Part shown: piece by piece, positions 2,022 through 10,000 of the stretch
Numbering within the stretch: the first letter of the stretch is position 1
How the letters are laid out: each line of letters starts with the position of its first letter
Source: Kiritimatiellota bacterium
GTDB lineage: Bacteria; Verrucomicrobiota; Kiritimatiellia; JAAZAB01
Length of the DNA: 10,000 bases
Direction of reading: 5' to 3'
Assembly (NCBI GenBank): GCA_008636095.1
Contig: VSJD01000335.1
Coordinates: 1 to 10,000 of the forward strand
Position numbers and translations under genes: made by a program
Notes under the pieces: generated by a model
Told to the model about the DNA's origin: nothing
The model's database searches: none
What the model saw: only the letters and a program-made list of their open reading frames with translations

Positions 2022-2267
2022 GTGAAAAATATCCGTACCTGCCAGATCTTAGCCCGGATATTTCACGGTTTAAGATCGCCCGTGAAGTATCCGCTTTGGC
2101 CGCAACATGATGCGGCCAAAGTTTCGGCGCGGCGCATGAGCGCCTTGCTCAAGACTAACCCTTCGCCGCGCCGGAAGGCAAACCCTGAGCAAGTCCCGTT
2201 CTTCGGGGCGCGTCGAAGCCCGAAGGGCGGACATTTCACGCCAATGCGTGAAATGTCCGGGTTAGTC
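2022..2267. repeat. Palindromic repeat mosaic with five alternating copies of a ~14-bp word
   Basis: The core word (consensus about CGTGAARTRTCCG) occurs five times in alternating orientation: 2022-2035 (+, two extra A), 2055-2068 (-), 2080-2093 (+), 2228-2241 (-) and 2246-2259 (+). The second copy can pair with either the first or the third, giving mutually exclusive hairpins. GATCTTA (2045-2051) also pairs with TAAGATC (2071-2077). Further dyads are TTTGGCCGCA/TGCGGCCAAA (2095-2104/2111-2120), TGAGCAAG (2186-2193) with CTTGCTCA (2144-2151), GGCGCGGC/GCCGCGCC (2126-2133/2165-2172), CCCTTCG/CGAAGGG (2159-2165/2221-2227) and GACTAACCC/GGGTTAGTC (2153-2161/2259-2267). The last pair bounds a 115-bp block. 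It resembles a REP/BIME-like or MITE-like intergenic element; which family is unknown to me. Confidence 0.8.
2228..2259. repeat. Perfect 14-bp hairpin spanning the dsbD start codon
   Basis: CGGACATTTCACGC (2228-2241) and GCGTGAAATGTCCG (2246-2259) are perfect reverse complements around a CAAT loop. The likely dsbD ATG (2244-2246) sits in the loop and the first base of the right arm. The right arm encodes residues 2-5 of the protein. If transcribed from upstream, this hairpin would strongly limit translation initiation at 2244. Confidence 0.85.
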
Positions 2268-4019
2268 GTTGTGCTTATGGGCTTGGCCAGTCTAGTGATG
2301 GCGGCTGATCCTTTTCAGGTATCCGTCCAGCTGGTGTCGTCCAATCAAATGTTGTCTGTGCAGGTGGAAGTTCCGGACCACCACAAGTTATATGCCGATC
2401 AATTCCGCGTCGAAGTTCCAGCACCGGCCAAGCTGATTCCGCGCTTCCTGCCAACACCGGAAAGTCAAGCCGATCCTTTGAGCGGAGAAAATACGCTCGT
2501 TTTCACACGCTCCTTCAAGGCACTTTACGCCATTGAAAACCTGAACACTAATCGTTTGCCGGTCACGGTGCGATGGCAGGGCTGTAACGCGACCGTTTGT
2601 TTTTTGCCGGTAACGAAAACATTTCTGGTTTCATGGGCAAGCCTGGCGTCATCTTCGGGCACCGTTCCTGCCGCAAACACGGCGGCTTTATCAGCCGATT
2701 GGCTGCCCGCCGATTGGCGAACCGCAAATTTGCGGTCCGCTGATTGGCGCGCGTTGACCAATCGGTTTATGCTTGTCGCTCAGCGGGCCGGGTATCTCTC
2801 ACCGTCGGAACTTATTTCATTTCTGGAATCGGCGCAAGGGCAGGGGGGCACTGTGCCGGAAACGCCCCTTGATCGCTGGTTGAAACGGTCGCTGTGGCTT
2901 TCGGTCCTGATCCTGCTTGTGGGTGGACTGGCCTTAAACCTGACGCCCTGCGTATTGCCGATGATTCCCATCAACCTGGCGATCATCGGCGCCGGGACTG
3001 GGGCGGTCACCACCGCTGGGGCGGTCACCACCGCTGGGGCGGTCACCACCGCTGGGGCGGTCACCACCGCTGGGGCCCAGTCGCGCCGGCGCGGGTTTGG
3101 GCTGGGTGCGCTGTATGGACTGGGCATGGCAGTCGCTTACGGCATCCTGGGTCTGCTGGTTGTACTGACCGGCACGAAGTTCGGCGCAATCAACGCTTCG
3201 CCTTGGTTTAATGTGAGTGTCGCGCTTCTGTTTGCTGTTCTGGCGCTGGCCATGTTTGATGTCTATCAAATTGATTTCTCCCGATTCCAGGGACGCTTTA
3301 ACAAGATTGGCATGGACGGCGATAACAGCCGCTATGACGGCAACAGCCGCTGTGGCGGCCATAGCCGTTTTGGCGGCGCGCTGGTGATTGTTGCCCTGGG
3401 CGCGCTGGCCGCGATTCTCTCGGGCGCCTGCGTGGCGCCGGTGGTGCTTTCGGTGCTTTTGCTTTCGGCCAGTCTGTATGCCCAAGGTCACGGCGCCGCT
3501 CTGCTGCTACCCTTTATCCTTGGCCTGGGCATGGCCTTGCCGTGGCCACTGGCCGGCGCTGGTCTGGCTTGTTTGCCCAAGCCGGGCCGCTGGATGGAAC
3601 GTATCAAGCACGGGTTCGGTGTCCTGATCCTGTTGGCGGCTGTCTATTACGCCTATACGGGACTGACGATCTGGCAGCAATCGCTGTGGCAGCCATCGCT
3701 GTGGCAGCCATCGCTGTGGCAGCAACCGTCGCAGAGCGGCGCAAGCGAGGGATGGCTGACCAGCCTGCCTGAAGCACTGGTTTTGGCGGACCGGGAGCAG
3801 AAACCGGTTTTCATTGATTTCTGGGCCTCGTGGTGTAAAAATTGTCATGTCATGGATGCGACGACTTTTCGGAACGCGCAGGTCCGTCAGCAGTTGGCAT
3901 CGTTTGTCAGGGTCAAGGTCCAGGCCGAACATCCCAATCAACCGCCCGACCGGGATATCCTGGACGCATTTGCCGTGATGGGCTTGCCCACATATGTTGT
4001 GCTCAAACCCAACCTGTGA
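2244..4019 (+). CDS. dsbD: DsbD-family thiol:disulfide interchange protein with in-frame tandem repeats, short C-terminus
   Basis: An inner-membrane protein that carries reducing power from cytoplasmic thioredoxin to extracytoplasmic thiols. From ATG 2244 it has 591 residues. Residues 1-20 form a signal peptide (cleavage near VMA/AD). Residues ~21-130 are the DsbD N-terminal domain with the GCNATVC pair (Cys114, Cys119). Residues ~215-475 form about six membrane helices, with the redox pair in TPCVLP (Cys236) and SGACVAP (Cys396). The last two helices of E. coli DsbD seem absent. A thioredoxin-like domain follows with WCKNC (Cys531, Cys534) and GLPT. Only 57 residues follow Cys534 and the chain stops just after GLPTYVVL, so the final strand and helix of the fold are missing. 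Four tandem-repeat tracts lie in linkers or loops. The start is uncertain: the frame is open back to GTG 2022, but that stretch is repeat DNA; ATG 2253 is an alternative. No strong ribosome binding site is seen. Confidence 0.87.
   Translation: MREMSGLVVVLMGLASLVMAADPFQVSVQLVSSNQMLSVQVEVPDHHKLYADQFRVEVPAPAKLIPRFLPTPESQADPLSGENTLVFTRSFKALYAIENLNTNRLPVTVRWQGCNATVCFLPVTKTFLVSWASLASSSGTVPAANTAALSADWLPADWRTANLRSADWRALTNRFMLVAQRAGYLSPSELISFLESAQGQGGTVPETPLDRWLKRSLWLSVLILLVGGLALNLTPCVLPMIPINLAIIGAGTGAVTTAGAVTTAGAVTTAGAVTTAGAQSRRRGFGLGALYGLGMAVAYGILGLLVVLTGTKFGAINASPWFNVSVALLFAVLALAMFDVYQIDFSRFQGRFNKIGMDGDNSRYDGNSRCGGHSRFGGALVIVALGALAAILSGACVAPVVLSVLLLSASLYAQGHGAALLLPFILGLGMALPWPLAGAGLACLPKPGRWMERIKHGFGVLILLAAVYYAYTGLTIWQQSLWQPSLWQPSLWQQPSQSGASEGWLTSLPEALVLADREQKPVFIDFWASWCKNCHVMDATTFRNAQVRQQLASFVRVKVQAEHPNQPPDRDILDAFAVMGLPTYVVLKPNL
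2694..2753 (+). repeat. Four 15-bp units (pentapeptide-like A[DN][WL]xx) in the dsbD linker
   Basis: Four consecutive 15-bp units encode ADWLP, ADWRT, ANLRS and ADWRA (DsbD residues 151-170), between the N-terminal domain and the first membrane helix. The register matches the pentapeptide-repeat consensus A(D/N)Lxx, with Trp replacing the central Leu in three units. Each unit begins with a small dyad: GCC-GATT-GGC twice, GCA-AATT-TGC, then GCT-GATT-GGC. A 16-bp perfect palindrome, ACCGCAAATTTGCGGT, lies at 2721-2736. Four units are too few to form a pentapeptide-repeat helix by themselves. Confidence 0.8.
3000..3071 (+). repeat. Four perfect 18-bp tandem repeats in dsbD (AVTTAG x4)
   Basis: The unit GGGGCGGTCACCACCGCT is repeated four times without any change at 3000-3017, 3018-3035, 3036-3053 and 3054-3071. 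It encodes alternating GAVTTA residues (DsbD ~253-276) in the loop between membrane helices 1 and 2, directly after the helix holding Cys236. Each unit contains a dyad GCGGT-CACC-ACCGC. Absence of divergence between units implies recent expansion or ongoing slippage, so copy number may vary between strains. Confidence 0.95.
3321..3374 (+). repeat. Three degenerate 18-bp tandem repeats in dsbD
   Basis: Three 18-bp units encode DNSRYD, GNSRCG and GHSRFG (DsbD residues ~360-377) in the loop between membrane helices 3 and 4, shortly before Cys396. Units share xx-AGC-CG(C/T) and the dyad GCCG...CGGC across each unit boundary. They are more diverged than the AVTTAG array, so this expansion is older or has been under less homogenisation. 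Confidence 0.75.
3672..3716 (+). repeat. Three 15-bp tandem repeats in dsbD (WQPSL)
   Basis: Units at 3672-3686, 3687-3701 and 3702-3716 have the form TGGCAGCCATCGCTG (the first has CAA for CCA) and encode WQ(Q/P)SL. A partial fourth unit follows. The array forms the linker between the last membrane helix and the thioredoxin-like domain (DsbD residues 477-491). Each unit contains the dyad CAGC-CATC-GCTG. Confidence 0.9.
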
Positions 4020-5038: not shown

Positions 5039-5308
5039 TGGAAGGTTACGCCGACGCGGTACCACGCAACGCTCTTGCGTGGAGAGGGAAGAGATCAAGG
5101 AGCCGGATCACGCTCCCTGGCCGAGCTCGGGCAGGCCGTGCCTGCCCTGCGAAGCGCCTTGGCGAAGCATGGGCCGCTGTGTCCTCAGGGGTGTCCTCCA
5201 TAGGCGGATCCGCCTTCGGCGGAAATCCCAGCTTGCTTTACATCTTCTTGTTTTTTATAGCGGCTCCCAACATTTAAGGACCTAATGAAGAGGCAAAAAT
5301 CTTCTCAA
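5039..5308. repeat. Palindrome-rich spacer between convergent genes
   Basis: No gene is supported here. The stretch holds several perfect dyads: CCACGCAA/TTGCGTGG (5062-5069/5075-5082), GGAGC/GCTCC (5099-5103/5112-5116), GGGCAGGC/GCCTGCCC with a CGT loop (5129-5136/5140-5147), the palindrome GGCGGATCCGCC (5203-5214), and the overlapping hairpin TCCGCC-TTC-GGCGGA (5209-5223). GCGAAGC is directly repeated at 5149-5155 and 5163-5169, and GTGTCCTC at 5179-5186 and 5191-5198. A T run at 5251-5256 lies too far from any stem for a textbook intrinsic terminator. The region may still end transcription from both sides. Confidence 0.65.
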
Positions 5309-8300
5309 TTAATATTTTCGGCCTTTTCTGAAATGACTTCCGATCTCATAATCGGTCAAGGCCCGGTTGAAGATTTTCACATCGTCAAGGGAACCCTTGA
5401 ACAACTTGCTCCCCATATTAACCTGGCCGATATATAAATTGGACGCCGCCCACTGCAAACTACCGGAAGAACTGGTGACATCGGTTGAAATTAATTCGCC
5501 GTCCTGGTAGCACTTCACAATATTCAATCCGTCGTAGGTAAATGCGACATGGCGCCAGCCGTCCCAGAAGAGGGGGGCTGAATATTGACACCAGTGCCAG
5601 CCTTGATTGACGGTGTTAATATGGGGATATATTCGATTATTTAAAATATCCAAACCATAAGCTCCTTCCGCTCCGGCAACTTCATTCCAGCCTGTGAAAT
5701 TCGTTGTCGGTGAATAGACCCAGGCTTCCATGGTAATTTCGGAAACTTTCAAGCTATCATTTGTGCCGCAAGCAATATAATCATCAATCCTGTCAAAGAC
5801 AAAGGCATCGCCGCTCCACAGCGGACTACCGCACAGAACCCCGTCATTCCCTTCCCAGGATGAATCTTTAGCTATGGCCACTTCCCCCTCGTCAAATTGC
5901 CAGCATCCGACCAGATTAATATTTTCTTCCCTTTCCCTGAAATGATTTCTGATCTCATAATCGGTCAAGGCCCGGTTAAAGACTTTTACATCGTCCAGGG
6001 AGCCTTTGAATAATTTACTCCCCATATTAACCTGGCCGATGTATAAATTACCCACCCAGTCCGCCCACTGCAAACTACCGGAAGAACTGGTAACATCGGT
6101 TAAAATTAATTCGCCGTCCCGGTAATATTTGACCGTTCCCAACCCGTCATAAGTGCAGGCAACCTGATGCCAGCCTTCCCAGGACAAAACGGAGGTATAA
6201 GGACAATAATGCCAGCCCTGGTTGGCCGTATTAATATGGGCACGCAGCTGGTTATTCACTATTAAAAGTCCATACGCGCCTTCCGCTCCAATTATTTCCC
6301 GCCAGCCCGGGAAATTCGTCGTGGGCGAATAGACCCAGGCTTCCATGGTAATTTGGGAAACCTTCAAGCTGGCATCGTTCCCGCAATCAATATAATCATC
6401 AATCCCGTCAAAACTAAATGCATCGCCAATCCACTGCGGGCTTCCGTACAGGACCCCGTGATTGCCCCGCCATGATGAATCGTTGGCTATGGCCGGGTTT
6501 TCTTCATCAAACTGCCAGTACCCGACCAGGTTTTCCTCTTTCAGTTGAATATCGTCCACATAATACGTAACGGCCTGGGCCGTATTCCAGTTTAAAATAT
6601 ATACGCCCAATGCTTCATTGGTCTGGGCAATTGTCCTGGTCACGCTTATTTTCTGCCAACCGCTGTTAAGCGTCGTTACGTTTTTGGCATAGGTCCAGCC
6701 GGCGGCGGAATAAAGACATATCTTCACCTGCCCCGCTCCTTTAACATAGGCGCTGGCCATATAAGTCTTGCCTTGCTCCACCAAATAGCCGGCCACGGTT
6801 TTCAATCCTTCATTCCCGTTGATGCCCGGAGTAGTTACTTTGAGCGCGTAATCTTCAGCGAGCGAGGCGTCAGATATTTCAAGCGTTGCGGGATTGGCGC
6901 TCCGGTAGGAAGCCCAGCCTTTTGTGCCCAGTTCAAAACTGCCATTATAAAGCATTTTATAATTTTGATTTTCCATTAATTCAACATTGTCCGCATAAAA
7001 CGTGACAGCCTGGGCCGTATTCCAGGTTAAAATGTGTACGCTCAACACTTCATTAGGCTGCTTGATTGTTCTGGTCACGCTTATTTTCTGCCAGCCGCTG
7101 TTGAGCGTCGTTACGTTTTTGGCGTAGGTCCAGCCAGCGGCGGAATAAAGACATATCTTCACCTGTCCAGCTCCTTTAACATAGGCGCTGGCGGTATAAG
7201 TCTTGCCTTGCTCCACAAAACAACCGGCCGGGTTCCTGAATCCATCAAACAACTGGATGCCCGGGGTGGTCACTTTGAGCGCCTTATTGCCCGCGAATGA
7301 TGCGGTAGACACCTCAAGCGTTGCGGGATTGTCACTGCGGGCGGAAGCCCAGCCTTCCGTACCCAGCTCAAACCCGAAGTTCTCCGTCAGGTTAATACGC
7401 TGCCAGCCGATACTTAACTGGCGGTAGCCGTTTGTCCAGCAGGACGAGCGCTCTTTCAGCGCGTAATAATCCACTATATCATTATCGCTATATAACGGAT
7501 TGACGGATATATCCCCCGTCCCCGCGCTGGTCCCAATATAATTCTGATTCACGCAGAATATATTGTTATAACTGGAATCACATTGCGAGCCGCCCGAACA
7601 AACAATTCCATCGCCGGCCGTGATGATGCTGTGATTGATATCTAACAACGAACCGTCCCCGGCCAGGATGGCCTGGTCGGCGGCGCCGATAGTTATGTTC
7701 TCAACCAGTGCGCTCGCATTGCCCGTCATTTCGATGGCCGTATTTTCCACGTCAAAGATGCAGTTGCGCATGCGAAGATTATTGGCAGCGTCAAGTTTAA
7801 TTCCATTAATCCCGTTAAAAGCAATATTTTCAATCAGCACGTTATCCGCGGAACTTACGAGCGCCGCAAAATCGGCCTCGGATGCTATTATAACCAAATC
7901 CGCCGCCTCGCCCCTGATCTTGATATCATCCTTGAACAAGAGATTTTCACGGTAAATTCCCTTGGCGACAAATATTTGTGTTTCGGGTCCGGCCATGTTA
8001 ATTGCACTTTGAATACTTTTAAACGGGGCGTTGGCGGCTCCCGTTTCTGCGGTCACGGAACTGTTGTTGTTCACATACACTTGCGCCGCGGACCATGATG
8101 AATAGACCCAGCGCGAAGACAGGTTATATGCGTCAAGCGCCCTCGCTCGGAAAGCAACCGCACTGACTGTTCGGTCGAAGGTGGCCGTCAAATAATCAGC
8201 ATTGGCGCTTTTAAGCGCATCCCAGTTGGTGCCGCCATCCAGGGAATATTCCAGCTCTATTTTGCTAATGCCGTTCTCATCGGCGGCCTGCGCCGTAATT

Positions 8301-10000
8301 TCAAGATATTCATCGCGTTCTGTAATAGAGAGAAAACATTCCGGCAGATCATTAAACGCGGTCCAGCCCTTGACGGTTGGCGTGTCTTCAATATAGACAT
8401 AAATGCGCTGTCCATTGGAAACCGTGTTGGAAGGCGTGAATGTTAATTCAAGCGCGTTGTCGCCGCTGGTCAGCGGGTCGTCCGTTGTTGCGGTTGGACC
8501 GGGAACCGCGTAATCGCCGGGATTATACGCGATGCGGCTGGCCAGTATTAAGGAATTTTGTATGTTTTCAGGTTTGGCCTTGATGTACATACTGGTATCC
8601 CAGGCCGGGCCGGCATTTTTATTCCTGGCAAAGACATGAACGGGCGCGCTTAAGGAAGTCTCCGCACTAACATTCCGCACAATTATCTTGATTTGACCGG
8701 TATCGGGATCATAAGAAATATTCGCACCTTTGACTACCAGCGGCCACTGCAGGCCTCCCCAGACATCATAAAGCCGGCCGCCCGGTGTATGCATCTCTTC
8801 TTTCATAAACGTATATTTACTGACACAGGCACTTTCCGCCAGGCCGGTAATCTTGTTTGTGTAAACAAAAGTGCTGGTGCTTTCGTCATACCCATATGGA
8901 CCGTTAAAGCAGTGGGCTACGGCCATGAGTCCTGCTTCTCTACTGTACCCGGCATAATTCTTCCAGTCCGTGCTGTAAATATAAACCTTGACGTGATCCA
9001 CGTTATTATTAGTTATTTGGATGTAACCACTATAGCTTGCATAGCTTTCCGTTACGGGCATATGCCAGAATTTACCATCTGGGCCAGCAGCGCTCAGGGC
9101 TTTGCCTTTTTGTAATATTCCTCCGGCCGAATTATAGCCCTCCCAATAAACCCCCAGCCACACGGGTGATGTGGACCATGTTTTCACCCCTTTTGCCATT
9201 ACGGTAAAATCAAGACGGCAAATCCCCAGATTACTGCCGCAGATTTGAGCGGCAACCTGACATCCATCCGCACACATTAACCCCCGGCTGTTGCCAACGC
9301 CCAACCCTTCCGCGTGGGCAACGTAAGTTTTCGGATTAACGACGTTTGTTATCTGGCTATTATCATTAAAACGAATCACATATCCGCCTTGATAAGCACT
9401 GCCGCCGTTTCTGATAATATAACTCGCGCTATAGTCCTTATTTGACTGGATGGCTATATCCTGATAACTGTCCATGTCCGAGCCGTTTATAAGATAAGTT
9501 GTTGCCCCATTAGTTAGTATTTCGGAATCCGGCGACCAGCCGTTTTTTCCATCCTGGAACTTGCCATTAACAATCAGATTTTCGCCGGTTAACGACACCA
9601 GGTCAAAAATAACCGGGGTTGCGTCCGTAGAGGTAATTAGCACGCGCGATTTGGTCGCGTTGGCCGGGCAAAGAAATGCAAAACCAAATCCCTTCCACGA
9701 AGAGCCTGCCCCTTTTGTATAATCCTGCTGTCCAATGATCTGCGCATTGTTATAATGGATGACAGTAACTTTAGCCGTTGCATTTGAGGCCTGGCCTTGT
9801 ATTACACAATAAAAATTATAGTTCAGCCCGGGAGTTAAAATAATATCCTGGTAACAGCCGGCCCCGCCAGCCACTATGGCCGAATAACCTTGCGATGTTC
9901 TGACCCAATCAACCAGATTGCCCTGCCAGGCTATAATCTGATCTCCGGTCATTAATTCAAAGCCGCCATTCGCTATTTTTTCGCTTTCATAAACCTTGAT
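5309..10000 (-). CDS. Giant multidomain extracellular protein: jelly-roll modules, beta-helix, two LamG domains (N-terminus outside window)
   Basis: The frame is open from the window edge at 10000 to TAA 5311-5309, giving 1563 visible residues; ATG 9952 is internal because IKVYESEKIANGGFEL precedes it in frame. Domains, counted from the edge: ~1-132 a jelly-roll-like module (IANGGFEL...WQ); ~141-280 a second one (NLIVNGKFQDGKNGW); ~290-550 unrecognised; ~555-635 an Ig/FnIII-like segment; ~641-865 a right-handed beta-helix of the pectin-lyase fold (VYVNN..., APFKSIQSAINMA, FVAKGIYRENL, then NVLIENIAF and LRMRNCIF turns); ~874-1015 and ~1019-1152 a pair of CBM4/9-like modules; ~1157-1361 and ~1362-1563 a pair of LamG/ConA-like domains (YWQFDE, FDGIDDYIDCG, MEAWVY, DDVKVFNRAL..EI). 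It is probably secreted and glycan-binding. No lyase or hydrolase catalytic motif and no C-terminal sorting signal is visible. Confidence 0.9.
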   Translation of the reverse strand: MKVYESEKIANGGFELMTGDQIIAWQGNLVDWVRTSQGYSAIVAGGAGCYQDIILTPGLNYNFYCVIQGQASNATAKVTVIHYNNAQIIGQQDYTKGAGSSWKGFGFAFLCPANATKSRVLITSTDATPVIFDLVSLTGENLIVNGKFQDGKNGWSPDSEILTNGATTYLINGSDMDSYQDIAIQSNKDYSASYIIRNGGSAYQGGYVIRFNDNSQITNVVNPKTYVAHAEGLGVGNSRGLMCADGCQVAAQICGSNLGICRLDFTVMAKGVKTWSTSPVWLGVYWEGYNSAGGILQKGKALSAAGPDGKFWHMPVTESYASYSGYIQITNNNVDHVKVYIYSTDWKNYAGYSREAGLMAVAHCFNGPYGYDESTSTFVYTNKITGLAESACVSKYTFMKEEMHTPGGRLYDVWGGLQWPLVVKGANISYDPDTGQIKIIVRNVSAETSLSAPVHVFARNKNAGPAWDTSMYIKAKPENIQNSLILASRIAYNPGDYAVPGPTATTDDPLTSGDNALELTFTPSNTVSNGQRIYVYIEDTPTVKGWTAFNDLPECFLSITERDEYLEITAQAADENGISKIELEYSLDGGTNWDALKSANADYLTATFDRTVSAVAFRARALDAYNLSSRWVYSSWSAAQVYVNNNSSVTAETGAANAPFKSIQSAINMAGPETQIFVAKGIYRENLLFKDDIKIRGEAADLVIIASEADFAALVSSADNVLIENIAFNGINGIKLDAANNLRMRNCIFDVENTAIEMTGNASALVENITIGAADQAILAGDGSLLDINHSIITAGDGIVCSGGSQCDSSYNNIFCVNQNYIGTSAGTGDISVNPLYSDNDIVDYYALKERSSCWTNGYRQLSIGWQRINLTENFGFELGTEGWASARSDNPATLEVSTASFAGNKALKVTTPGIQLFDGFRNPAGCFVEQGKTYTASAYVKGAGQVKICLYSAAGWTYAKNVTTLNSGWQKISVTRTIKQPNEVLSVHILTWNTAQAVTFYADNVELMENQNYKMLYNGSFELGTKGWASYRSANPATLEISDASLAEDYALKVTTPGINGNEGLKTVAGYLVEQGKTYMASAYVKGAGQVKICLYSAAGWTYAKNVTTLNSGWQKISVTRTIAQTNEALGVYILNWNTAQAVTYYVDDIQLKEENLVGYWQFDEENPAIANDSSWRGNHGVLYGSPQWIGDAFSFDGIDDYIDCGNDASLKVSQITMEAWVYSPTTNFPGWREIIGAEGAYGLLIVNNQLRAHINTANQGWHYCPYTSVLSWEGWHQVACTYDGLGTVKYYRDGELILTDVTSSSGSLQWADWVGNLYIGQVNMGSKLFKGSLDDVKVFNRALTDYEIRNHFREREENINLVGCWQFDEGEVAIAKDSSWEGNDGVLCGSPLWSGDAFVFDRIDDYIACGTNDSLKVSEITMEAWVYSPTTNFTGWNEVAGAEGAYGLDILNNRIYPHINTVNQGWHWCQYSAPLFWDGWRHVAFTYDGLNIVKCYQDGELISTDVTSSSGSLQWAASNLYIGQVNMGSKLFKGSLDDVKIFNRALTDYEIGSHFRKGRKY
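5312..6532 (-). repeat. Tandem duplication of a LamG module (~205 residues each)
   Basis: Copy 1 (6532 down to ~5918) begins NLVGYWQFDE and copy 2 (5917 down to 5312) begins NLVGCWQFDE. DNA similarity is high, for example across 5331-5440 and 5940-6049, with the copies offset by 609 bp there. One visible indel is WADWVGN in copy 1 versus WAASN in copy 2. Long stretches such as LYIGQVNMGSKLFKGSLDDV are identical. Confidence 0.9.
6533..7381 (-). repeat. Tandem duplication of a CBM4/9-like module (period 435 bp)
   Basis: Copy A runs from 7381 to ~6947 (NFGFELGTEGWASARS) and copy B from 6946 to ~6533 (NGSFELGTKGWASYRS). The offset is exactly 435 bp. The cores QVKICLYSAAGWTYAKNV and TTLNSGWQKISVTRTI are identical in both. 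DNA in this core (about 6640-6780 and 7075-7215) differs at only scattered, mainly synonymous positions. This points to recent duplication or gene conversion. Confidence 0.92.
7405..8080 (-). other. Right-handed beta-helix region of the giant protein
   Basis: Residues ~641-865 begin with VYVNNNSSVTAETGAANAPF and KSIQSAINMAGPETQIFVAKG, the usual entry into a pectin-lyase-fold helix. Short rungs follow, each with an N-x-x-I/L-x-x-x-x-F/I pattern: NVLIENIAFNG, LRMRNCIFDVENTAIEM, ALVENITI, LLDINHSIIT and DSSYNNIFCVN. No cluster of Asp/Arg/Lys residues typical of pectate-lyase active sites stands out, so binding or a structural role is as likely as catalysis. Confidence 0.75.

What the first reader, a model, noticed from the sequence alone, without database searches (positions are those of the whole stretch)
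2694..3731. DsbD homologue with four separate in-frame minisatellites, one per linker or loop, each unit hairpin-capable
Four tandem arrays interrupt one redox membrane protein: 4 x 15 bp (ADWxx, 2694-2753), 4 x 18 bp perfect (AVTTAG, 3000-3071), 3 x 18 bp (xxSRxx, 3321-3374) and 3 x 15 bp (WQPSL, 3672-3716). All units are multiples of 3. All arrays sit outside the folded domains and helices: the N-domain linker, loop 1-2, loop 3-4 and the linker to the thioredoxin domain. Unrelated in sequence, they share one property: each unit carries or completes a short dyad (GCC-GATT-GGC, GCGGT-CACC-ACCGC, GCCG...CGGC, CAGC-CATC-GCTG). In-frame palindromic insertions inside genes are known from Rickettsia (RPE elements), but tandem arrays of several types in one gene are unusual. 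The inference is a genome-wide process that seeds or expands small palindromes, tolerated where the protein is flexible.
Basis: partly seen in the sequence, partly recalled or inferred. Interest (0 to 1): 0.72.

Follow-up and report, generated by a model that had tools for sequence, protein, structure and literature searches.

The report
Hairpin minisatellites inserted into core genes
In one genus of uncultured bacteria, short DNA hairpins, mostly in units of exactly 18 letters, have been added and multiplied in frame inside ordinary genes, and what is conserved between them is the hairpin's shape rather than its sequence.

Summary
The four arrays are real and lie in a DsbD gene of a Kiritimatiellae MAG. 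Against three same-genus homologues, site 2 is a clean insertion, site 3 is absent from two of the three, and sites 1 and 4 are expansions. One 18-bp unit sits at site 2 here, site 4 in a second species and site 3 in a third, in three reading frames giving three peptides, so the process acts on DNA. It is genome-wide: in unbiased samples 11 of 19 period-18 arrays here (0.68 expected) and 8 of 17 in a sister species (0.36 expected) have exactly the geometry 5-bp stem, 4-nt loop, 5-bp stem, 4-nt loop, with nearly free sequence. Arrays sit in core genes (MurF, MurD, ProA, GlnE, RsmH and others). Copy number steps by 18 bp between species (ProA 3/2/1/0) and is zero in the outside genomes aligned. 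Between the two species 6 aa is the commonest coding indel (15 of 44), against 0 of 14 in a Sinorhizobium control. Best mechanism (inferred): hairpin-dependent slippage and template switching, filtered for frame and loop position. It resembles Rickettsia palindromic elements, small dispersed repeats and PARCELs but belongs to none. New variant of a known kind; mechanism unproven.

The parts
2022..4019 (+). open frame of the DsbD homologue (GTG at 2022; likelier starts are ATG at 2244 or 2253); DsbD_N, DsbD_TM, Thioredoxin_7
   Evidence: homology to same-genus proteins begins at residue 77-81 of this frame
2694..2753 (+). site 1: four 15-bp units (ADWxx) in the linker after the N-domain; about 30-33 bp longer than in L039, where one ADW unit is present
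   Evidence: weak dyads, one perfect 16-bp palindrome
2998..3076 (+). site 2: GCGGT-CACC-ACCGC-TGGG, 4.4 perfect copies, encoding (AVTTAG)4; 72-bp insertion absent from all three same-genus homologues
   Evidence: unit (rotated CGGTCACCACCGCTGGGG) also at site 4 of L035 (x3) and site 3 of L039 (x1)
3321..3377 (+). site 3: three 18-bp units of the GCGGC-AACA-GCCGC-TATG type in the loop before the next helix; absent from L034 and L035, while L039 has one site-2-type unit
3672..3725 (+). site 4: 3.6 copies of a 15-bp unit (CAGC-CATC-GCTG-TGG, stem 4, loops 4 and 3) in the linker to the thioredoxin domain; L035 has 3 x the site-2 unit here and L034 one hairpin GCGGC-AACA-GCCGC

Best explanation
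The four arrays are local outcrops of a genus-wide mutational process that adds and multiplies short hairpin modules, mostly 18 bp, inside genes. Shown by comparison: modules have a fixed dumbbell geometry (5-bp stem, tetraloop, 5-bp stem, tetraloop; a 15-bp version has 4-4-4-3), nearly free sequence, and copy number that differs between species in 18-bp steps; related modules recur at other sites, preferentially on the same contig; orthologues of the tested genes outside the genus lack them. Inferred: the cause is replication error at hairpins. A nascent strand or flap folds on a chance inverted repeat with a 4-nt loop; slippage between short direct repeats 18 bp apart adds a unit; intrastrand template switching (quasi-palindrome correction) then perfects or rewrites the stem. 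With two tetraloops each half-stem can pair with its upstream or its downstream partner equally well, which would make the unit prone to slip. Of the lengths produced, selection keeps those that preserve frame (15, 18 bp) and fall in flexible segments. Occasional copying of a module to a nearby site spreads families locally. No benefit to the protein is needed.
For: (1) Geometry found without selecting on dyads: of TRF period-18 consensus units, 11 of 19 (own, unbiased) and 8 of 17 (G004) are exactly 5-4-5-4, against 0.68 and 0.36 expected from shuffled units; 0 of 2 in other taxa (0.06); in the best-stem listing every unit with a 5-bp stem has loops 4/4. (2) In the 49-cell loop matrix for S-L1-S'-L2-S with stem 5, clusters at (4,4) are 19 (own; other cells mean 3.21) and 26 (G004; mean 2.35), against 6 (mean 2.79) in other taxa, 0 (mean 0.98) in the same family's other genera and 2 (mean 3.50) in Sinorhizobium; 30 of 32 and 34 of 39 of the 23-mers are distinct; clusters with two or more motif hits are 8 of 19, 8 of 26 and, in other taxa, 0 of 6. 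(3) Copy ladders: ProA own 3, G004 2, G003 1, G001 0, six genomes outside the genus 0; YicC own 3, G002 2, G004 1, G003 1, and 0 in the four outside genomes displayed; MurF own 4, and 0 in G002, G004 and four outside genomes; L199-type membrane protein own 3, G004 2, G002 2, G003 0, G001 0, four outside 0. (4) Indel spectrum own vs G004, 74 non-overlapping orthologue pairs, 30,087 aa: 6 aa = 15 of 44 indels, 5 aa = 0, 7 aa = 1; Sinorhizobium control 0 of 14, Fisher P 0.008. (5) One DNA unit read in three frames in three species (AVTTAG, RSPPLG, GHHRWG). (6) In the L199-type gene of G002 the unit matches the 18 bp just before the array at 14 positions, that stretch holds CCAC-CTGC-GTGG, and two of the changes make the stem longer; unexpanded G003 has CCGC-CTGC-GTGG there, one G-T pair (read by eye). 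(7) Precedent: yeast rad27-delta accumulates short-direct-repeat indels and quasi-palindrome corrections (PMC5677150, abstract and section 16).
Against: In three of four first-step cases read by eye (ProA, MurF, TopoVI-B) about half of the first unit is not explained by the neighbouring sequence, so pure local duplication does not suffice. Among 12 well-flanked 6-aa events only 6 look tandem and 8 have a stem of 5 or more (null 22%); 3 of the 15 come from one poorly aligned pair. Own against G003 (40 kb, 10 indels) has no 6-aa indel, though two of 12 aa and one of 24; G004 against G003 has 4 of 12 (these G003 stretches were chosen for known units). Within-array changes are mostly one-sided: 45 broken and 20 G-T against 3 two-sided Watson-Crick cells. 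About 3 of the 19 own and 2 of the 26 G004 motif clusters are expected by chance. No repair-gene loss is specific to the genus: the Pol I-type 5'-3' exonuclease domain is present in 5 of 5, MutS above cut-off in 4 of 5, and SbcD above cut-off is missing from 5 of 5 but also from 30 of the 33 others. No mutation rate was measured.
Confidence: 0.57

Rival explanations
1. A very small mobile element: 14-18-bp hairpins are moved by a transposase that recognises hairpin plus tetranucleotide (REP/RAYT or IS200/IS605-like), and tandem arrays arise by repeated insertion beside an existing copy.
For: Units fall into families beyond chance (own unbiased: 7 pairs with 14 or more of 18 identical against 1.38 expected; G004 24 against 7.5), similar units cluster on the same contig (permutation P 0.0004 and 0.0008), the site-2 unit is at three different sites in three dsbD genes, the first insertions in ProA and at dsbD site 2 are flanked by short direct repeats (by eye), and Y1_Tnp genes exist in 4 of 5 genus genomes.
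Against: Sequence is nearly free, unlike transposase substrates; Y1_Tnp is as common outside the genus (13 of 15 other genomes); single 5-4-5 hairpins are not in excess over 5-3-5 or 5-5-5 hairpins (1.50, 1.41, 1.50 per kb); many changes are plain copy-number steps. The contig test is partly biased because C93, C213, C196 and C62 (and three G004 stretches) were picked by similarity.
Confidence: 0.2
2. Protein-level selection: flexible hexapeptide repeats are favoured in loops and the DNA dyads are a by-product of codon choice.
For: The array units are multiples of 3, and in DsbD all four overlap low-confidence, mostly coil segments.
Against: The same DNA unit gives three unrelated peptides in three frames; shuffled units do not reproduce the dyads; unrelated enzymes carry unrelated hexapeptides.
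Confidence: 0.04
3. The arrays act in the RNA or DNA (mRNA hairpins, protein binding sites) and are kept for regulation.
For: Strong hairpins; loops CACC/TGGG recur in several loci.
Against: No conserved sequence or position; arrays lie inside many unrelated genes; copy number differs between close relatives.
Confidence: 0.06
4. Ordinary VNTR slippage: any short tandem repeat in this genus expands, and hairpins are incidental.
For: Many heptanucleotide arrays also exist (periods 7 and 14 make 36 of 102 own arrays).
Against: Geometry is specific (5-4-5-4; at period 15, 4-4-4-3 in 5 of 9 unbiased units against 0.65 expected, and 1 of 4 in other taxa against 0.34); period-21 units show no dyad excess at P 0.05; 18-bp insertions without tandem similarity also occur, 6 of 12 well-flanked.
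Confidence: 0.1

Closest known systems
Rickettsia palindromic elements (RPE)
   Same: Palindromic DNA inserted in frame in conserved genes (PMC2229807, passages); such insertions are described as lying in non-structured segments (PMC2996958, passages)
   Different: RPEs are 105-146-bp elements; these are 15-18 bp, tandem, and share shape rather than sequence. The 33-bp insertions seen in passing are the nearer analogue.
Very small mobile repeated elements / SDRs of cyanobacteria (Elhai 2008; not held; recalled)
   Same: About 20 bp, tandem, possibly mobile (so described in PMC2884548, passage)
   Different: As recalled, SDRs are defined by a conserved sequence
PARCEL (palindromic amphipathic repeat coding elements)
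   Same: Intragenic tandem repeats whose DNA has dyad symmetry, thought to shuffle within genomes (PMC2996958, abstract and passages)
   Different: A 25-residue protein motif with a conserved amphipathic pattern in ORFs without assigned function, mobile-element associated in some taxa; here 6-residue units of unrelated peptides in core enzymes
REP/RAYT palindromes
   Same: Short hairpins with a tetranucleotide, sometimes inside ORFs (PMC3733652, passages)
   Different: REPs carry GTAG or CGTC tags, have conserved families and are mainly extragenic
Quasi-palindrome correction and inverted triplication by template switching (rad27-delta yeast, ODIRA)
   Same: S-S'-S is a tiny direct-inverted-direct triplication; short-repeat indels and palindrome perfection occur together in rad27-delta (PMC5677150, abstract and section 16; ODIRA: PMC10766183, passages)
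   Different: ODIRA amplifies segments that contain a replication origin, so far larger ones; rad27-delta is an engineered defect, and no loss of the corresponding nuclease domain was found here

Membership tests
Rickettsia palindromic element | 105-146-bp element with long stem and terminal inverted repeats | tested here: not met
   units are 15 or 18 bp
Rickettsia palindromic element | in-frame insertion in conserved protein genes | tested here: met
SDR (Elhai 2008, recalled) | conserved unit sequence dispersed through the genome | tested here: not met
   30 of 32 and 34 of 39 motif hits are distinct; small families only
PARCEL | 25-residue amphipathic repeat motif | tested here: not met
   hexapeptides of unrelated composition
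PARCEL | dyad symmetry in tandem coding repeats | tested here: met
REP/RAYT | GTAG or CGTC tag next to the hairpin | tested here: not met
   loops are diverse (TGGG, CGAC, ACCG, TTCG, GTTG and others); CGTC occurs as a loop in one family (L231, L185) but not generally
REP/RAYT | cognate Y1 transposase adjacent to the repeats | tested here: inconclusive
   Y1_Tnp genes present, but also in 13 of 15 genomes outside the genus; adjacency not examined
In-frame coding minisatellite (VNTR) | tandem units with copy number varying between relatives | tested here: met
   ladders in ProA, YicC, TopoVI-B, L199-type protein; variation within a species not testable here
MITE | terminal inverted repeats with fixed-length target duplication | tested here: not met
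   exact direct-repeat lengths at 39 single-period loci range 5-17, median 8, 5 being required by the search

The most novel reading that the evidence does not exclude
A shape-defined genetic element: an 18-nt dumbbell (5-bp stem closed by two tetraloops) that propagates through single-stranded folding, so that geometry rather than sequence is inherited. Stems would drift by paired changes, copies would spread by template switching to nearby sites, and a whole genus would thereby have 18 bp as its commonest coding indel, building new peptide segments in core enzymes.
Probability: 0.22. Interest if true: 0.9.

Novelty: new variant of a known kind. Interest (0 to 1): 0.76.

Why it matters
Indel lengths in bacterial genes usually fall off with size (recalled; the Sinorhizobium control here agrees); in this genus one length dominates and is tied to a DNA fold. 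If the mechanism holds, it gives a natural system for how hairpins drive in-frame tandem duplication and how proteins acquire new loops, and it makes the origin of coding minisatellites and palindromic insertions testable from sequence. It also warns that copy-number-variable hexapeptides in these MAGs may reflect mutation rather than adaptation.

Tried and rejected
Rejected or not supported: assembly artefact (units of the same kind in several MAGs of the genus; raw reads not seen); selection for a peptide (three frames); a single conserved 18-mer family (pattern CGGWCACCWCCGCYGGGG with 1 mismatch gives 10 hits in G000, 3, 2 and 5 in G002, G003 and G004, and 1-3 in 12 of the other 54 genomes); loss of SbcD, MutS or the 5'-3' exonuclease as a genus-specific cause; Y1 transposase as a genus-specific cause; local templating of the loop L1 (three first-step cases, by eye, none fits). 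First null dropped: counting circular self-complementary matches against single-base shuffles saturates in GC-rich units and showed no signal (0 of 19 own and 0 of 17 G004 period-18 units at P 0.05); replaced by contiguous-stem geometry, with the matrix as a second test. A second tall pair of cells in the own matrix, (3,2) and (2,3), with 20 and 14 hits: 21 of the 34 are one dispersed sequence, CCGCCNNNGGCGGNNCCGCC. The first Sinorhizobium stretches were not syntenic and gave 0 pairs; refetched. The sample of the same family's other genera is small: 0 clusters in 157,897 b where 3.5 to 6.2 would be expected at genus rates; comparing own or G004 proteins with that sample gave 2 of 17 and 1 of 6 indels of 6 aa, none with good flanks. 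G001, the most distant genus member, had no unit in the genes where it could be judged, so the process may belong to part of the genus only. Rows dropped before counts: five contigs chosen by similarity (C1, C93, C213, C196, C62) from the unbiased own set; three genus loci from the other-taxa set (of 80, 77 used); overlapping orthologue pairs (131 reduced to 74). Three G004 stretches (L190, L198, L199) chosen by hits stay in the G004 set; without them (4,4) is still 28 hits against a mean of 2.12. In the YicC display 8 of 10 loci were used, in the L199 display 9 of 10; in MurF the G012 row aligned poorly and two rows (G001, G003) fell out of the alignment by frame choice, while one search shows their matches split at the array without extra bases. 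The genes were picked because they have arrays, so ladders cannot show direction or rate. Literature searches for an 18-bp hairpin-array phenomenon or repeats in Kiritimatiellae showed no match in their listings; the library holds only open-licence papers.
Full report
WHAT IS THERE. The open frame at 2022-4019 encodes a DsbD homologue (DsbD_N, DsbD_TM, Thioredoxin_7). Record titles of the nearest relatives place the genome among Kiritimatiellae MAGs; the three nearest dsbD genes (L034 = G002, L035 = G004, L039 = G003) are 71-75% identical over the frame.

ARE THEY INSERTIONS? Codon alignment: site 2 is a clean 72-bp insertion absent from all three. Site 3 is absent from L034 and L035, while L039 has one 18-bp unit there, and that unit is the window's site-2 unit. 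At site 4 L035 carries three copies of that same unit, L034 one hairpin GCGGC-AACA-GCCGC (the window's site-3 type), and the window a 15-bp hairpin array. Site 1 is an expansion of a single ADW unit present in L034 and L039. The site-2 unit is thus read as AVTTAG, RSPPLG or GHHRWG in three species.

WHERE IN THE PROTEIN. The AlphaFold2 model (mean pLDDT 78.5, pTM 0.64, 31 sequences) has segments below pLDDT 50 near the start and at residues 132-162, 251-271, 356-368 (with one residue above) and 481-496. The arrays are at residues 148-167, 250-273, 357-374 and 474-488: mostly coil, with the ends of sites 1, 3 and 4 running 3-6 residues into a helix.

IS IT GENOME-WIDE? I sampled 925,807 of 3,806,325 bases of the own genome and 662,281 bases of G004. 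Five own contigs chosen by similarity were set aside. Period-18 arrays: 20 in 858,080 b (own), 17 in 662,281 b (G004), 3 in 515,537 b of loci from outside the genus. Of consensus units of length 18, 11 of 19, 8 of 17 and 0 of 2 are exactly stem5-loop4-stem5-loop4, with 0.68, 0.36 and 0.06 expected from shuffles; in the five set-aside contigs 9 of 10. Among period-15 units, 2 of 5 (own) and 3 of 4 (G004) have 4-4-4-3, against 0.37 and 0.28; outside 1 of 4 against 0.34. A direct scan for S-L1-S'-L2-S with stem 5 and all loops 2-8 peaks at (4,4): 19 and 26 clusters against means of 3.21 and 2.35 in the 48 other cells. Loci outside the genus give 6 against 2.79, the same family's other genera 0 against 0.98 (157,897 b) and Sinorhizobium 2 against 3.50 (750,000 b). 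Clusters with two or more motif hits are 8 of 19, 8 of 26 and 0 of 6 (own, G004, outside). The other tall pair of cells in the own genome, (3,2)/(2,3), is in 21 of 34 hits one conserved dispersed sequence, whereas 30 of 32 and 34 of 39 of the (4,4) 23-mers differ. Most clusters lie in long open frames: 17 of 19 and 20 of 26 in frames of 250 codons or more (frame length only).

WHICH GENES. I searched families for 19 own proteins and found one for 18 (L233 had none). With tandem dumbbell arrays: TopoVI-B, PilC/GspF, ComEC, GlnE (two arrays), YicC, PgpA, an outer-membrane efflux protein, ProA, RsmH, MurF, MurD, an alanine-racemase-fold protein, a lysine-aminomutase-like radical SAM protein and DnaJ. 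With only the short S-L1-S'-L2-S motif, of which about 3 in the own sample are expected by chance: a PD-(D/E)XK protein, phosphoglucose isomerase and RibD; GMP synthase has two overlapping motif hits.

STEPWISE COPY NUMBER. ProA: own 3, G004 2, G003 1, G001 0, six genomes outside the genus 0. YicC: own 3, G002 2, G004 1, G003 1, four outside genomes 0. MurF: own 4; G002, G004 and four outside genomes 0. TopoVI-B: own 2, G004 1, G003 0; the linker is not alignable further out. A membrane protein chosen from G004 (family not searched): own 3, G004 2, G002 2, G003 0, G001 0, four outside 0. All these steps are multiples of 18 bp.

AN INDEPENDENT TEST. Without reference to repeats, I aligned reciprocal-best open frames of the unbiased own sample and the G004 sample. 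In 74 non-overlapping pairs (30,087 aa, 89.4% identity) there are 44 indels: lengths 1 to 4 aa have 8, 5, 3 and 4; 5 aa 0; 6 aa 15; 7 aa 1; 11 aa 3; five others longer. With well-conserved flanks 12 of 33 are 6 aa. The Sinorhizobium meliloti/medicae control (41 pairs, 14,761 aa, 87.8%) has 14 indels, all of 1-5 aa. Fisher P for 6-aa is 0.008, and against the mean of lengths 4, 5, 7 and 8 the Poisson P is 7e-12. Of the 12 well-flanked 6-aa events, 6 look tandem (null 3.6%) and 8 hold a stem of 5 or more (null 22%). Smaller comparisons: G004 against 40 kb of G003 has 4 of 12 indels of 6 aa, own against the same 40 kb 0 of 10, but two of 12 aa and one of 24 aa (stretches chosen for known units).

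FAMILIES AND SPREAD. Units are more alike than random dumbbells of the same composition (own unbiased: 7 pairs with at least 14 of 18 identical against 1.38, P 0.007; G004 24 against 7.5, P 0.007), and alike units are enriched on the same contig (P 0.0004 and 0.0008; partly biased by contig choice). So units appear both multiplied in place and copied nearby.

MECHANISM. Best supported is replication error at hairpins: slippage between short direct repeats 18 bp apart plus template switching that perfects stems. In the L199-type gene of G002 the unit equals the 18 bp just before the array at 14 positions; that stretch holds CCAC-CTGC-GTGG, a 4-bp stem with a tetraloop, and the differences lengthen the stem. 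Unexpanded G003 has CCGC-CTGC-GTGG there, with one G-T pair (by eye). The same combination of changes is reported for yeast lacking the flap nuclease Rad27 (PMC5677150, abstract and section 16). Against this, about half of the first unit in ProA, MurF and TopoVI-B is not explained by its surroundings, which favours import of a ready-made unit. None of the four families tested separates the genus from its neighbours: the 5'-3' exonuclease and MutS are present, SbcD above cut-off is absent but also in most of the class genomes searched, and Y1 transposases are general. Step one (how a unit first appears) is inferred; step two (18-bp changes) is shown by comparison, not by watching it happen.

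COMPARISON. It works like in-frame palindromic insertion (RPE) and like small dispersed repeats, and shares dyad-bearing coding tandem repeats with PARCELs, but a defining feature of each was tested and not met (size, conserved sequence, 25-residue motif). The searches listed no description of shape-conserved, sequence-free coding minisatellites or of an 18-bp indel peak.

Noticed in passing
window 2031-2264: The region just upstream of the dsbD start is a dispersed repeat: its translation matches six other places in the own genome and places in G003, G004, G008, G027 and G056.
   Followed up: no
L260, L150, L168: A 33-bp palindromic element of the CCAGGCTCCGCC...GGCGAGT type is inserted in frame in genes of one species and absent from the orthologue in the other; its commonest 13-mers occur 14 times in about 1.6 Mb. 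It is the closer analogue of an RPE.
   Followed up: partly
window 5203-5222: Member of a dispersed family GGCGGNNCCGCCNNNGGCGG that makes up 21 of 34 hits in the (3,2)/(2,3) cells of the own geometry matrix.
   Followed up: partly
own genome and G004 samples: Many heptanucleotide arrays (periods 7 and 14 are 36 of 102 own arrays and 24 of 74 in G004), reminiscent of cyanobacterial heptad repeats (recalled).
   Followed up: no
L034 dsbD, site 1: In-frame insertion CTTCGCCAAGGCTACGCAGGGCAGGC resembles, on the opposite strand, the intergenic sequence at window 5130-5165 (by eye).
   Followed up: no
L231 (glnE) and L239: A further dispersed palindrome, TCCCGACCTCCCGGAGAGTCGGGA, lies inside open frames at these two places; one of its 13-mers has 6 copies in the own sample and 0 in G004.
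   Followed up: no
G000:C297 and other genomes: The Pol I-type 5'-3' exonuclease domain sits in open frames of about 200-400 aa in 16 of the 17 genomes with a match, so it may be a stand-alone protein rather than fused to a polymerase.
   Followed up: no
window 5309-9952, minus strand: A very long open frame (1,547 aa) with internal near-repeats (two copies around 5320-6530 and two around 6540-7370, by eye); families not searched.
   Followed up: no
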